Translations under genes and position numbers: made by a program
Notes under the pieces: model-generated
Told to the model about the DNA's origin: nothing
The model's input: only the letters and a program-made list of their open reading frames with translations
The model's database searches: none
Shown: one piece after another, positions 36,714-42,764 of the stretch
How positions within the stretch are numbered: the first letter of the stretch is position 1
Layout of the letters: each line of letters starts with the position of its first letter
Origin: a virus
Reading direction: 5' to 3' (one strand)
IMG/VR virus record: IMGVR_UViG_3300023091_000003
Location: 1 to 49,305 of that record
Length of the DNA: 49,305 nucleotides

Positions 36714-36921
36714 TGATATTGACGGCCCTAATAAGATAAGAACTGATCCTGATTTTGTTTATATGAACAGATATCACAATTCTATTAAGGAGTTACTGGA
36801 TAGATATCCTGATGGGTGTCCAGATCATATTATAGCTTCGGCCTTTGAAATTACTGAAGAAGAGCTAGAGGAAAGATTTCAGAGACTTATCCTTGACTTG
36901 AAGGTTAGAATGGGTGTATAG
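36706..36921 (+). CDS. Hypothetical protein, 71 aa
   Basis: It starts MLNDIDGPNKIRTDPDFVYM; the C-terminal half (PDHIIASAFEITEEELEERF) looks like a small HTH of the kind found in phage regulators. ATG 36706 gives a normal 8-base overlap. The assignment as HTH is tentative. Confidence 0.5.
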   Translation: MLNDIDGPNKIRTDPDFVYMNRYHNSIKELLDRYPDGCPDHIIASAFEITEEELEERFQRLILDLKVRMGV

Positions 36922-37870
36922 TGTCTCTATTATGAGGCACTCACTCTATTGGGACGACTTTAACAAAAGAATAGAAGAGACATCTGATTATCTAAATGGT
37001 AAGTCAAATGTCTTGCCAGTAAGACGGGTTGCCGTTTTTGTTACGGATAAGTGCAACTTCAAATGCAGGTACTGTAATGTTAAGGATACTGGCGAAACAA
37101 TGGAGAAGTCTACTTTTCTAACCATTTTGGAAAAGTATGGCAAAGAAGCAATAATCCATCTTACTGGAGGAGAACCTTCTATGGTCCCTTGGTTGTTTCC
37201 TACTATTATGGAATTGGGAGATAAATACCGATTTCATCTCAATACAAATGGGTATAGAACTCCACCTTATAAGTGTGTAAAAAGATTGAAGATTTCTCTT
37301 GATTCTTGTGATCCCGTTTACTGGAATGCTTTGGTGGGTAGAAAGAATGCATTTGAAGTGGTCGTTGACAATATCAAAGAAAGCATCCCGCACACCGTAG
37401 TTTCTATTACTTTCACCCTCAGCAAGAATAATTATAAACAAGCCATAGACTTTGCTAGGTTTGCTAGAAATGAATTCACTGGACTTTACGCCTTATTCTT
37501 TTCCGTTTATAAAGGATGTCAGCCCGATTTTGAGATATCTAAGGAAGACGCAAATGATATCTTTGATAATGTTCTCCCAGAGCTTTCAAGAGAGTTGTCT
37601 GAGGAGTCATTAGCTCTTTTAAGGGAAACTATTGATGAAAAGAGGCGGTTAATTCAAGGCATTAGGTTTGAACAGGATTTAAACAAGGCCTGTTATATTT
37701 CTATGAGTGAACGGGTTTTTTCTCCAGATGGTACGGAATCTTGTTGCTCTCACCTATATCGAGATGGTATAATGTCTCAAATTTCGGCAAAGCATGAAAA
37801 ATGTAAATATGGATGCAACCAAAGGCTTGTGCAGTTTAATAGGGAAGTAGAAAACAGGATTAATAAGTAA
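36914..37870 (+). CDS. Radical SAM enzyme with C-terminal Cys cluster
   Basis: The 318-residue protein has CNFKCRYC near residues 47-54, the CxxxCxxC [4Fe-4S] motif, followed by LTGGEP (SAM-binding GGE) near 85. The C-terminal 60 residues hold further Cys (ACYIS, CCSHLYRDG, KCKYGC) like a SPASM or twitch auxiliary cluster. Such enzymes modify peptides, sugars or nucleotides. The gene abuts a Dam-like methyltransferase homologue. The start may be GTG 36914 or ATG 36932; GTG is listed because of its 8-base overlap with the previous gene. Confidence 0.85.
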   Translation: MYSVSIMRHSLYWDDFNKRIEETSDYLNGKSNVLPVRRVAVFVTDKCNFKCRYCNVKDTGETMEKSTFLTILEKYGKEAIIHLTGGEPSMVPWLFPTIMELGDKYRFHLNTNGYRTPPYKCVKRLKISLDSCDPVYWNALVGRKNAFEVVVDNIKESIPHTVVSITFTLSKNNYKQAIDFARFARNEFTGLYALFFSVYKGCQPDFEISKEDANDIFDNVLPELSRELSEESLALLRETIDEKRRLIQGIRFEQDLNKACYISMSERVFSPDGTESCCSHLYRDGIMSQISAKHEKCKYGCNQRLVQFNREVENRINK

Positions 37871-38674: not shown

Positions 38675-40456
38675 ATGCGAAATTATTCCAGCCCCCACTG
38701 CCATCTTCAAAGTTTAGATTCCGCATCTACTCCTGAAGCCTTTGCCGAAAGAGAGGTAGAATTAGACAGCGGCAGCCTTTGCGTGACAGATCACGGATCC
38801 CTTGGCGCAGTGTTTAAAACCTATCAGCTAGCTAAAAAGAACGGTTTGACATTCTGTGGAGGATTGGAAGGGTATTACAGAGACGATGATTGTCCAATTT
38901 TACTAGCCCATGATATCCCAAGAACAAGCTTCATTCCCAAGGGGTCTGATAAAACAAAATGGGCGGCAGAACATCCTAATGGTTCTTTTTGTGAGTATAT
39001 TAAATATCAGCATTTTACTCTTGGATTTAGAGATTTCAAAGCATATAAAGCTACTGTAAGGTTGCTATCAAAAGCAGATGCTAATAGTGAACTGCATGGT
39101 CAAGAAAGAAAGCCTCTTTTCTCATGGAATCAGCTCGAAGAGCTAGCTTCATATAATACAACTCTAGGGTCTAGTTGTGTTATTGGAATGGTTTCAAGAC
39201 ACTTGCTTAATGAAAAAATCCCACAAGAGACAAGGTTTAGTATCGCCAAGGCTTATTTTGAAAGACTCCACTATTTGTTCAAAGATCGCTTTTTTGTTGA
39301 GGTCTTTCCCCACGTCTGCAATATGAATTTTATTAAGGGTGTGTTTATTGAAGTTGAAAAAGAGGGTATTAAAGAAACTCTAAAATATTACTTCGATAAG
39401 AACCTAAAGACTAACGACGGCACAATTACAGCAGAAAAGCTTGCAGACAATTACGATAAAGATAAACATCTGCAATTAATTGGGGCTTGTAATTATAGAG
39501 TTTGGACAGATTTTGACACTCCTTATAAGATATTAAAGGTAGAAAAGAAGAACGATTTTTATCAAAATGAGTGCAGTCCCTGGTCTCCTAATGGGGATAT
39601 TCAATTTGGAGCAAATCTACTTGCGATGGGGCTAGCTAAAAAATACAAGGTGCCTATTCTATGTTCCTGTGACGCTCACTTTTGCAAGCCATCTCAAAAG
39701 GTTATTCAAGACGTTAGATTGAGTCAGATGGGCGATTGGAAATTTTATAGTTCTTACCATAGGCAGTCTTCTGAAGAGGCTTTTTCCCATTTTAACAAAA
39801 CACATGGGACCGATCTAAAAACTTTTGAACAATGGATAGACAATAGCAAGCAGTGGGTTGAAGGATTTAAAGGATTTGAGTTTGATAATAAGCCTCAACT
39901 GCCTACCAAGTTCTTTCCATCTTTAACGCTTGAGTATACTAAAAAGCTCATTCAAAAACATGGGAGAATGCCAAAAAACAATCCGATTTATGTAGAAAGG
40001 CTCAAGAAAGAAATTGACATCTTACATAAGAATGGTAAAATAGATTTATTGCCGTATTTTTTTATTGATGAAGAGGTTTGTAGAGTTTATCAAAATCAAG
40101 GACAGTTAACTTCTCCAGGCCGTGGCAGTGGTGCTGGACTTCTTCTTAATTACCTTCTAGGTATAACATCGGTAGATCCGATTAAAAACGATCTGTCTTT
40201 AGAAAGGTTTATTAACAGCGCTAGAATAGAATCGGGCAGTCTGCCTGACGTCGATCAAGATTTAGCGTCTCGTGATTTGCTTGTGGGGTATGACACAGAT
40301 GTTGTAGAGTTTGAATGTGAAGATGGAACCAAGCACACTCTTCCCAAAGACTTTAAAATTGAAACAAACTTAGGGCTTTTAACAGCACAAGAAACCTTTG
40401 AAAAGAATGCAGATATTGATCAATGGTGGGTAAATGAAAATCAAAACAATAACTAG
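38675..40456 (+). CDS. dnaE: DNA polymerase III alpha, N-terminal part (PHP and first palm half)
   Basis: The 593-residue protein begins with a PHP domain (YSSPHCHLQSLDS; VTDHGSLGAVFK; later CSCDAHF). GRGSGAGLLLNYLLGIT near 482-498 and LPDVDQD near 523-529 are DnaE palm motifs; Asp525 and Asp527 match the first two catalytic aspartates. From about 538 it leaves the DnaE pattern: DTDVVEFECEDGTKHTLPKD then FKIETNLGLLTAQETFEKNA, which resembles the second half of the DnaE split-intein N-fragment (Hint fold) without the initial Cys block. It stops at 593. The rest of the polymerase is in the overlapping gene 40434-42764. Confidence 0.88.
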   Translation: MRNYSSPHCHLQSLDSASTPEAFAEREVELDSGSLCVTDHGSLGAVFKTYQLAKKNGLTFCGGLEGYYRDDDCPILLAHDIPRTSFIPKGSDKTKWAAEHPNGSFCEYIKYQHFTLGFRDFKAYKATVRLLSKADANSELHGQERKPLFSWNQLEELASYNTTLGSSCVIGMVSRHLLNEKIPQETRFSIAKAYFERLHYLFKDRFFVEVFPHVCNMNFIKGVFIEVEKEGIKETLKYYFDKNLKTNDGTITAEKLADNYDKDKHLQLIGACNYRVWTDFDTPYKILKVEKKNDFYQNECSPWSPNGDIQFGANLLAMGLAKKYKVPILCSCDAHFCKPSQKVIQDVRLSQMGDWKFYSSYHRQSSEEAFSHFNKTHGTDLKTFEQWIDNSKQWVEGFKGFEFDNKPQLPTKFFPSLTLEYTKKLIQKHGRMPKNNPIYVERLKKEIDILHKNGKIDLLPYFFIDEEVCRVYQNQGQLTSPGRGSGAGLLLNYLLGITSVDPIKNDLSLERFINSARIESGSLPDVDQDLASRDLLVGYDTDVVEFECEDGTKHTLPKDFKIETNLGLLTAQETFEKNADIDQWWVNENQNNN

Positions 40457-42764
40457 GACTTCTGAAAAAGGTGATTTGCCTACCTATTTTGATGGATGGC
40501 TCCAGGAACGCTTTCCAGACCACTTTGCTCAAATAGGGACTCTTAACACACTAAAATTAAAGAACGCGGTCAGAGACGTTGCTAGAGCCCTTCTAGGCAG
40601 CGTCCCTCCAGATATTGAGAGACTAGCTAAGGGATTTGTTGTCCCGCCTCAAGGGGTAAATGATAAGAAATTTATTTTAGGATATGATACAGACGAAGGG
40701 TTTGTTCCTGGGAGTATTGAAACTGATAGAAACTTGCAAGAATATGTTAGAAAGTATCCCGATCATTGGACTTTGGTGCTAGATTCATTAAGCTTATGGA
40801 GGTCCAAGGGGCGTCACGCCGCAGGATATGTAATTAGCAACGAACCAATTGATGAGTTTATTCCAACTACAACCACTTCTGGCGTTAAAGTTCTTGATTT
40901 CTCTGGGCCTGACGCTGAAGCTTGTGGTGCAATTAAGATGGACTTCTTGACAGTTAATTGTCTTAAGGACGTTCAAGAAGCTACTAAGCTTATTCAAAAA
41001 CGGGTGTTTGGGGACTATCCAAAGGATACTGTTATAAACGGGCTAAAGGTTCCTGGTATTCGAGTGATCCCAGACAAAAAGGGCAATAAATACGATTTGT
41101 GGGATCTCCCACAAGATAAAGAAGTTTTTAATGATATTTATTTAGGTGAGGTTGAAACCGTTTTTCAGTTAGATTCGTCTTCTGCCAGGAAATGGCTGCA
41201 TTACTTCAAAGATCTTTTCAATTCTGAAGAGGATTTGTCATTATTTACCGCCCTAGACAGGCCTGGTCCTCTTGAATATTTTGTTACCAATCCAGATTGT
41301 CCATCTGTGAAACATAATATGTTGGTTGAGTATTCCAGAAGAGCTAGTGGTCTAAAAGGAAGTGATGATGTAGTAAAAGAACTTGACACACTATGTGCAG
41401 AAACAAAGGGCATCATGGTTTATCAAGAGTCTTTAATGAAAGTTTATCGGTATTTTACGGACTGCACAGCTGTCGAGGCGGAAGAATTTAGAAGAATGGT
41501 GGGGAAGAAAAAAAGGGATCGAATAGAAAAGGCTTATCTAGACTTCATTAAAAAGGCCGCTGAAAAGGTTGGAGAAAAAGCTGCACAAGCTGTATGGGAT
41601 AGTATAACTACGTGGAGCGCCTACGGGTTTTGTCATGCACACAGTTTTAGCTACGGTAAGCTAGCTTACACTTGTTTGTGGCTAAAACATTATTATCCTC
41701 TTGAATGGTGGGTTGCAGTTCTCCGGGGATCTTCCAAAGACGAACTAAACGACAAATTCTGGATGCATTGCAGTCATCTAGTGCTGCTGCCCGATATTAA
41801 ACTATCAAAAGGTGATTGGGAAATTGAAGGTGATAAAATTAGAGCACCTATCTCTATCCTCAAAGGCGTCGGTGATACGGCGCACAAACAGCTATCGCAA
41901 TCAGCGCCGTATACCGATCTAAAACACTTTTGTCAGGCTATTATTGACTATCAAAAGAACAATCCTATTCTTAAGGACAAAGAGGATAAAGACGGTTCAG
42001 TCAAAAAAGTAAAAGTTTGGGGTAGAAATGCTCTTGACATTGGCAAGATATATGCTATGATATCTGCTGGTTGTCTTGATTCATTTTTTGATAAAGATGC
42101 AACAATTGCAGTTAAAGTTGATTCTTATCATTCCATGATGAAAGAGCTTTATAGTCTTGAAGGTAAGAAATATAAGAAGCCCAAGAAAGAACTGCCTGTT
42201 TTGGATACCCTTAGTAGATATCAAGCAAAGAAAGCTGTTTTGCCTCTTTATGGAGAGGATTTAAGGCCATCAGTAATTGCAGTTGGGTTACCAGAATTCT
42301 TAAACAGTGATGGTACTTCAATTAGAATTAGGAACAAGGTTTATAGTAAAGATGCTCATCAAGAGATTGATACATACGATCCTGTAATTGGGGCTAAAGA
42401 GCTGCTTGAGTTAGAGGCTAGCCAGGGGTTTGAGGGTAGGTATATCAGATCTGGGATTATATGCTATCTAGAAGACAAGGAGAAGTTTAATTGGGGTCCA
42501 GACAAGGGGAAGGAGGCTTATAAGTTCTTCGTTGAGTTTGGTGGAATGAAGAGGGAACTTGTCATGTGGCCTGACTTTAATGATAATATTCCTTTGATTG
42601 CTAAAGAGATTGAAAAGGGTAGTATAATTGCAGTAATCGTTAATAAGAGTGCAGGGAAGAAAGATTTTGCAATCAGGGGGATTGAGGTTATTAGGAAGCC
42701 TTTGGATGAAAAAACAATTAATTGCAGCGAAGAAAATGTTGACAAGGCAGCAGAAGAAGAGTAA
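40434..42764 (+). CDS. dnaE: DNA polymerase III alpha, C-terminal part (palm, thumb, fingers, OB)
   Basis: The 776-residue protein, in the +1 frame relative to the first part, overlaps it by 23 bases. After a short start (MKIKTITRTSEKGDLP), DnaE homology resumes at DGWLQERFPDHFAQIGTLNT. IKMDFL with Asp170 matches the third catalytic Asp. The usual FCHAHSFSYGKLAY block and an OB-type C-terminus (RSGIICYLEDKEKF) are present. The first 10 residues recall the start of split-intein C-fragments, but the final His-Asn is missing. GGTGGG lies 4 bases before the ATG, so it can be translated separately. Confidence 0.88.
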   Translation: MKIKTITRTSEKGDLPTYFDGWLQERFPDHFAQIGTLNTLKLKNAVRDVARALLGSVPPDIERLAKGFVVPPQGVNDKKFILGYDTDEGFVPGSIETDRNLQEYVRKYPDHWTLVLDSLSLWRSKGRHAAGYVISNEPIDEFIPTTTTSGVKVLDFSGPDAEACGAIKMDFLTVNCLKDVQEATKLIQKRVFGDYPKDTVINGLKVPGIRVIPDKKGNKYDLWDLPQDKEVFNDIYLGEVETVFQLDSSSARKWLHYFKDLFNSEEDLSLFTALDRPGPLEYFVTNPDCPSVKHNMLVEYSRRASGLKGSDDVVKELDTLCAETKGIMVYQESLMKVYRYFTDCTAVEAEEFRRMVGKKKRDRIEKAYLDFIKKAAEKVGEKAAQAVWDSITTWSAYGFCHAHSFSYGKLAYTCLWLKHYYPLEWWVAVLRGSSKDELNDKFWMHCSHLVLLPDIKLSKGDWEIEGDKIRAPISILKGVGDTAHKQLSQSAPYTDLKHFCQAIIDYQKNNPILKDKEDKDGSVKKVKVWGRNALDIGKIYAMISAGCLDSFFDKDATIAVKVDSYHSMMKELYSLEGKKYKKPKKELPVLDTLSRYQAKKAVLPLYGEDLRPSVIAVGLPEFLNSDGTSIRIRNKVYSKDAHQEIDTYDPVIGAKELLELEASQGFEGRYIRSGIICYLEDKEKFNWGPDKGKEAYKFFVEFGGMKRELVMWPDFNDNIPLIAKEIEKGSIIAVIVNKSAGKKDFAIRGIEVIRKPLDEKTINCSEENVDKAAEEE

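What the first reader, a model, noticed from the sequence alone, without database searches (positions are those of the whole stretch)
40210..40500. Replicative polymerase split at its active site with an intein-like remnant
The two DnaE parts overlap by 23 bases in different frames. The break falls just after the first two catalytic aspartates, while the third is in the second protein. About 56 residues at the end of part one (EFECEDGTKHTLPKDFKIET) resemble the C-terminal half of cyanobacterial DnaE split-intein N-fragments, and part two starts with MKIKTITRTSEKG, like an intein C-fragment opening, but the splice-site Cys and His-Asn are missing. It could be a decayed intein, a novel Hint-like assembly domain, or a frameshift-joined protein.
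Basis: partly seen in the sequence, partly recalled or inferred. Interest (0 to 1): 0.8.

Follow-up and report, generated by a model that had tools for sequence, protein, structure and literature searches.

The report
Split phage polymerase with dead intein clasp
This phage makes its DNA-copying enzyme as two proteins, and at the break each carries part of an old self-splicing element that has lost its cutting chemistry but probably still clasps the halves together.

Summary
DnaE is encoded by two overlapping genes (38675-40456 and 40434-42764, 23-nt overlap, different frames). The break lies after catalytic Asp525/Asp527; Asp170 is in part two. It is neither a sequencing error nor a frameshift product. 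A near-identical second contig has the same frames, and 15 of 73 non-redundant related phage dnaE genes are split at this site, the halves lying from 29 nt overlapping to about 1.2 kb apart. The other 58 are continuous with no insert. All 15 carry homologous extra ends. A profile of these ends hits only cyanobacterial DnaE split inteins in the PDB above background (14 best hits, E 1.3e-4 to 2.4e-3), aligned to the second lobe of the N-intein. The AlphaFold model's first 32 PDB matches are all inteins or Hint proteins, Npu DnaE first. The splicing Cys, TxxH His and terminal His-Asn are missing, yet the ends are under purifying selection (dN/dS about 0.08-0.11) and acidic versus basic, as in split-intein capture. 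Four split relatives have an endonuclease VII-type HNH gene between the halves. Best reading: an intein/homing-endonuclease insertion whose splicing-dead half-Hint persists as a non-covalent clasp. Assembly itself is inferred, not shown.

The parts
38675..40456 (+). DnaE part one: PHP domain plus first part of the palm with two catalytic Asp (nt 40247-40249 and 40253-40255)
   Evidence: Pfam PHP 1e-14 and DNA_pol3_alpha 7.9e-21; coordinates
40283..40453 (+). C-terminal tail of part one (57 aa, net charge -9), half-Hint segment; best-conserved core VVEFECEDGTKHTLPKDFKIETNLGLLTAQETFEKNADIDQWW (nt 40301-40429)
   Evidence: Absent in 58 continuous relatives; profile of 15 tails+heads hits DnaE split inteins; AF2/Foldseek
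40434..42764 (+). DnaE part two: rest of palm (third Asp, nt 40941-40943), fingers, HhH and C-terminal region
   Evidence: Pfam DNA_pol3_finger 1.8e-20, DNA_pol3_alpha 7.6e-16, HHH_6 6.5e-7; Asp coordinate
40434..40493 (+). N-terminal head of part two (MKIKTITRTSEKGDLPTYFD); MKIKTITRT is predicted as a beta strand completing the tail's fold
   Evidence: Conserved [ML][KR][IF] opening in all 15 split relatives; AF2 strand 73-81
40434..40456 (+). 23-nt overlap of the two genes in different frames
40425..40430 (+). GGTGGG, a possible ribosome-binding site before the ATG of part two, overlapping the codons of the conserved Trp-Trp of the tail
   Evidence: read from sequence; not tested for function
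39335..39550 (+). Insert within the PHP domain with a similar sequence pattern; a lead only, not counted as part of the clasp
   Evidence: hhalign A5 vs A9 probability 82% over 31 columns; no intein hit in PDB

Best explanation
The dnaE gene was split at a loop of the palm by a mobile element of the split-intein plus homing-endonuclease kind. What remains at the break is half of a Hint (intein) fold: the tail of part one corresponds to the second (N2) lobe of a DnaE-type N-intein, and the head of part two supplies the first strand of the C-intein. The first lobe and all splicing residues are gone. The acidic tail and the basic-to-neutral head are proposed to find each other as in the 'capture' step of split inteins and to fold into a small beta clasp, which holds the two polymerase chains together and brings the third catalytic Asp to the other two without joining the backbone. 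Shown: split, conserved site, homology and fold resemblance, missing splicing residues, purifying selection, HNH genes at the site in relatives. Inferred: binding of the ends, an active two-chain polymerase, order of evolutionary events.
For: Fifteen split vs 58 continuous dnaE genes, all splits at one site with homologous ends. Profile of the ends vs 177,635 PDB sequences: the 14 best hits are all cyanobacterial DnaE inteins, E 1.3e-4 to 2.4e-3, next non-intein 0.048. Fold: module pLDDT 81-91; the first 32 Foldseek PDB hits are all inteins or Hint proteins, Npu DnaE first (probability 1.00), and Npu IntN alone aligns over 42 residues at 1.6 A, 36% identity. The same profile run on 29,002 ORFs of the loci finds, after the split genes themselves, a real DnaE intein in L004 (E 7e-4). 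dN/dS of tail+head 0.11 (L062/L095) and 0.08 (L084/L085), close to the polymerase core. Tail net charge -4 to -13 in 15/15, first 12 head residues 0 to +4; no 57-aa stretch of the window polymerase body is as acidic as the tail. In Npu DnaE the capture charges lie in the N2 lobe and IntC (PMC11923092). Endonuclease VII/HNH genes between the halves in L022, L021 (short), L032 and L058. Split genes are not one clade (p-AU 1.6e-5).
Against: No biochemical evidence that the halves bind or are active. The fused model forces proximity of the two ends, so the tail-head pairing in it is not independent evidence. Homology of the short head to IntC is not significant by sequence. Foldseek E-values are modest (best 0.013) because the module is about 60 residues. 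The window itself has no endonuclease gene at the break. The two palm halves could also find each other through the polymerase interface alone.
Confidence: 0.75

Rival explanations
1. Inert, decaying intein remnant with no function; the polymerase halves assemble through their own interface.
For: Splicing residues are gone; tail ends vary in length (47-66 aa); divergence of tail and head is higher than that of the core in some pairs, e.g. L014/L063 tail 45% vs core 81% identity.
Against: dN/dS about 0.08-0.11 in the two pairs where it can be measured well; acidic tail in all 15; the module is kept even where the halves are about 1.2 kb apart.
Confidence: 0.13
2. Programmed frameshift or stop readthrough joins the two parts into one polymerase.
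For: Overlapping frames in the window; L014 halves lie in one frame with a single TAG between them.
Against: Geometry differs between lineages: overlaps of 29, 23, 14 and 4 nt, small gaps, and gaps of about 0.24-1.2 kb with other genes inside; part two has its own conserved start.
Confidence: 0.03
3. Active split intein that trans-splices the halves by unusual chemistry.
For: Intein homology and fold; L057/L058 happen to have a Cys after RDLL.
Against: No conserved residue-1 nucleophile, His of TxxH replaced in all 15, no His-Asn before the C-extein, N1 lobe and the C-terminal part of IntC absent.
Confidence: 0.03
4. The ends are not intein-derived: they descend from the similar insert inside the PHP domain, or from the endonuclease cassette as in Aeh1 NrdA, and resemble Hint by convergence; they may still act as a clasp.
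For: The PHP insert has a similar pattern (hhalign probability 82% over 31 columns) and is weakly hit by the module profile.
Against: The PHP insert profile has no PDB hit at all, while the junction module hits only inteins above background and the fold matches inteins; Aeh1 ORFs give no hit to the module profile.
Confidence: 0.06

Closest known systems
Aeromonas phage Aeh1 NrdA split by MobE (Crona et al. 2011, Nucleic Acids Res 39:1381, known here through its title and the summary in PMC3267527; reviewed in PMC2988022)
   Same: Essential enzyme cut in two at a functionally critical region by a free-standing HNH homing endonuclease; extra ends on the halves; by its title those protein interaction domains derive from the mobile element and assemble the enzyme.
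   Different: Different gene; Aeh1 ORFs do not match the DnaE module profile; here the ends look like half of an intein fold; most split members, including the window, have no endonuclease at the break.
Cyanobacterial DnaE split inteins (Npu, Ssp)
   Same: Homologous to the second lobe of IntN; similar acidic/basic division; also in a DnaE gene.
   Different: Inserted at another DnaE site (from memory, before the SHSxAY segment); N1 lobe, nucleophile, TxxH His and His-Asn are absent here, so no splicing is expected; about 60 instead of about 137 residues.
Fractured genes with split inteins and a free-standing endonuclease between the halves (Dassa et al. 2009, Nucleic Acids Res 37:2560; cited in PMC3653736, text not held)
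   Same: Host gene broken at a conserved site, intein pieces at the ends, endonuclease gene between.
   Different: Those are split inteins taken to splice; these ends lack the splicing residues.

Membership tests
Split intein (protein trans-splicing) | Hint fold formed by both fragments | tested here: inconclusive
   Half of the fold only (second IntN lobe plus one IntC strand): profile hits; Foldseek
Split intein (protein trans-splicing) | Residue-1 nucleophile at the N-extein junction | tested here: not met
   Residue after RDLL is V in the window and V, E, A, C or T in relatives
Split intein (protein trans-splicing) | Block B TxxH | tested here: not met
   Npu TKDH aligns with PKDF (window) or PEDF; no His at this position in any of 15
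Split intein (protein trans-splicing) | C-terminal His-Asn followed by Cys/Ser/Thr | tested here: not met
   Heads of the split genes run into the GWL/GWF/PWL segment of the palm without it
Homing-endonuclease-fragmented gene with assembly tails (Aeh1 NrdA type) | Gene split where relatives are continuous | tested here: met
   15 split, 58 continuous
Homing-endonuclease-fragmented gene with assembly tails (Aeh1 NrdA type) | Free-standing endonuclease gene at the break | tested here: inconclusive
   Not in the window; endonuclease VII/HNH genes in L022, L021 (short), L032, L058
Homing-endonuclease-fragmented gene with assembly tails (Aeh1 NrdA type) | Extra ends on both halves that bind each other | not testable with these tools
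   Ends present and conserved; binding needs an experiment
C-family DNA polymerase (DnaE) | PHP, palm with Asp triad, fingers, HhH | tested here: met
   Pfam PHP, DNA_pol3_alpha, DNA_pol3_finger, HHH_6; Asp525, Asp527, Asp170

The most novel reading that the evidence does not exclude
Splicing-dead half-Hint pieces are a recurrent domesticated docking domain in phages: a selfish split intein turned into a permanent non-covalent clasp that keeps a replicative polymerase active as two chains, with the PHP insert of the same enzymes as a second, in-chain copy of the same fold.
Probability: 0.3. Interest if true: 0.8.

Novelty: new variant of a known kind. Interest (0 to 1): 0.62.

Why it matters
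It offers a natural case in which a mobile self-splicing element has apparently lost splicing but kept its fragment-recognition half, holding together an essential enzyme cut through its active site. If true it shows a route from selfish element to assembly domain, gives compact natural dimerisation tags, and provides 15 distinct pairs in which the capture step of split inteins can be studied without splicing.

Tried and rejected
Pfam, NCBIfam and PHROGs scans of single module sequences found no family. tblastn of the module in 50,697 phage records found nothing relevant. Sequencing error rejected: twin contig L001 differs at 4 of 12,328 positions, none at the junction. Frameshift or readthrough rejected by gene geometry in relatives. 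An intact intein at this site was looked for in 73 non-redundant loci and not found. The Aeh1 NrdA break was fetched for comparison; its ORFs gave no hit to the module profile. The first structural alignment (A6) was discarded because continuous genes were misaligned onto the insert. The PHP insert as an intein relative was tested and not supported in the PDB. A module search for non-DnaE hosts in viral contigs returned only DnaE loci. Crona 2011 and Dassa 2009 are not held as text. A resemblance of the tail's first residues (VGYDTDVV) to intein block A (Npu CLSYDTEIL, from memory) was considered; it is not kept across the relatives (GQDD, GWQT, GGDG, EEHD) and is left as a lead.

Full report
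Observation. The window (a 49,305-base virus record) encodes DnaE in two genes, 38675-40456 and 40434-42764, which overlap by 23 nt in different frames. Pfam finds PHP and the start of the palm in the first, the rest of the palm, fingers and HhH in the second. Catalytic Asp525 and Asp527 (PDVDQD) are in part one, Asp170 (KMDFL) in part two. A second contig, IMGVR 3300048581_000059, is identical across the junction and differs at 4 of 12,328 positions elsewhere, so a sequencing error is unlikely.

The break is an insertion. In Myxococcus phage Mx1 the dnaE gene is continuous and passes from query residue 541 of part one directly to residue 21 of part two. Scans of viral contigs with part one, the module and part two gave a set that reduces to 73 non-redundant dnaE genes; 58 are continuous with only a short variable loop (RDLL...GWL) at this place and 15 are split there. 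Each of the 15 carries a tail of 47-66 residues (window: VGYDTDVVEFECEDGTKHTLPKDFKIETNLGLLTAQETFEKNADIDQWWVNENQNNN) and a head beginning [ML][KR][IF].

Not a frameshift. Relative to the first base of the stop codon of part one, part two starts at -26 (L015), -20 (window), -11 (L111), -1 (L062, L095, L057, L063), +3 (L014, same frame, after TAG), +4 (L010), +241 (L085), +384 (L075), +421 (L084), +430 (L060), +676 (L058) and +1,247 (L012, with other ORFs between). Separate translation, with re-initiation where the genes overlap, is the simplest reading; the Trp-Trp of several tails is written TGGTGG(G), a possible ribosome-binding site before the start of part two (inference).

What the ends are. 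Single sequences match no family. A profile of the 15 joined ends, run against 177,635 PDB sequences, gives 14 cyanobacterial DnaE intein chains as the best hits, E 1.3e-4 to 2.4e-3, all at intein residues about 52-106 (94-138 in some constructs), and the next non-intein at 0.048 (with 10 sequences the same family led, but more weakly). In the alignment the Npu TKDH of block B corresponds to PEDF/PKDF. Run on 29,002 ORFs of the fetched loci, the best non-self hit is a genuine intein in the DnaE of L004 (E 7e-4). AlphaFold2 on the window's joined ends (frame joined by reading GTAA as one residue) gives pLDDT 81-91 for the module, with five strands and one helix; the last strand, 73-81, is the head of part two. 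The L014 model has the same elements. Foldseek against the PDB lists only inteins and a Hedgehog Hint domain in the first 32 places; the Npu DnaE intein is first (E 0.013, probability 1.00), and the isolated Npu N-intein aligns over 42 residues at 1.6 A with 36% identity. Because the ends were fused for the model, the pairing of tail and head is not independent evidence.

What is missing. There is no conserved residue-1 nucleophile, no His of TxxH in any of the 15, and no His-Asn before the downstream palm; the first lobe of IntN and most of IntC are absent. Splicing is therefore not expected.

Why it is probably functional. dN/dS of tail plus head is 0.111 (L062/L095) and 0.076 (L084/L085), like the polymerase core; other pairs are saturated at synonymous sites. 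Tails carry net charge -4 to -13 in all 15 and the first 12 head residues 0 to +4; no 57-residue stretch of the window polymerase body is as acidic as its tail. In Npu DnaE the charges that drive fragment capture lie in the N2 lobe of IntN and in IntC, and association is electrostatic before folding (PMC11923092; PMC11766414). The parts kept here are the N2 lobe and the opening strand of IntC. The proposal that they clasp the two polymerase chains follows from this; it is an inference.

Origin. L022, L032 and, shortened, L021 have an endonuclease VII (HNH) gene between the halves, and L058 one on the opposite strand. The split genes are not one clade (p-AU 1.6e-5; 0.005 without L032), L032 is sister to the continuous L031, and the continuous L011 lies inside a split group. 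Homologous ends at one site in separate branches mean lateral spread, repeated loss, or both; endonuclease identity (60%) is not clearly above polymerase identity (56%) between L022 and L032, so I do not decide between them.

Comparison with what is known. The closest working analogue is the Aeh1 NrdA split by MobE, where interaction domains derived from the mobile element assemble the enzyme (title and summary in PMC3267527; phage homing-endonuclease review PMC2988022). It works like that system by inference; sequence kinship was tested with the module profile on the Aeh1 locus and not found. It is not a functional split intein: three defining features were tested and not met. Searches of the held paper library found no report of a non-splicing split-intein remnant used as an assembly domain in a DnaE, but that library lacks many papers.

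Noticed in passing
window 39335-39550 (part one aa 221-292) and the same place in L002-L008, L031, L036 and others: An insert inside the PHP domain of the clade with a pattern like the junction module (VFITLEDGTK...KT..GEI.AEDLA...KI.KVE); hhalign probability 82% but no intein hit in the PDB.
   Followed up: partly
L004/L082 (GRHA|CFPGG...VHN|CAF), L005/L095 (GFNQ|SIDGDT...TSN|SHAV), L050/L057 (SSRG|CLEGDA...AVHN|SAGG): Apparently intact inteins at other DnaE sites of the relatives; the L005 one is near the cyanobacterial DnaE split-intein position (from memory).
   Followed up: partly
L014, L060, L063 part two, about aa 55-85: A CxxC...CxxC-like insert (zinc-ribbon-like by eye) in the palm region of these split polymerases.
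   Followed up: no
Foldseek viral hits to Campylobacter phage proteins (PhoH H6SU60, MobE H6SUG1, terminase, RNR): Predicted structures of several Campylobacter phage proteins contain stretches similar to the module, perhaps further cases of intein-derived pieces in phage genes.
   Followed up: no
L012 7738-8984: The ~1.2-kb gap between the dnaE halves holds ORFs with no family match (e.g. MPRPNKIKKLQLDFEKGPY...), i.e. other genes settled between the halves.
   Followed up: partly
window 36914-37870: Protein with CNFKCRYC near its start, read by eye as radical-SAM-like, upstream of the polymerase genes.
   Followed up: no
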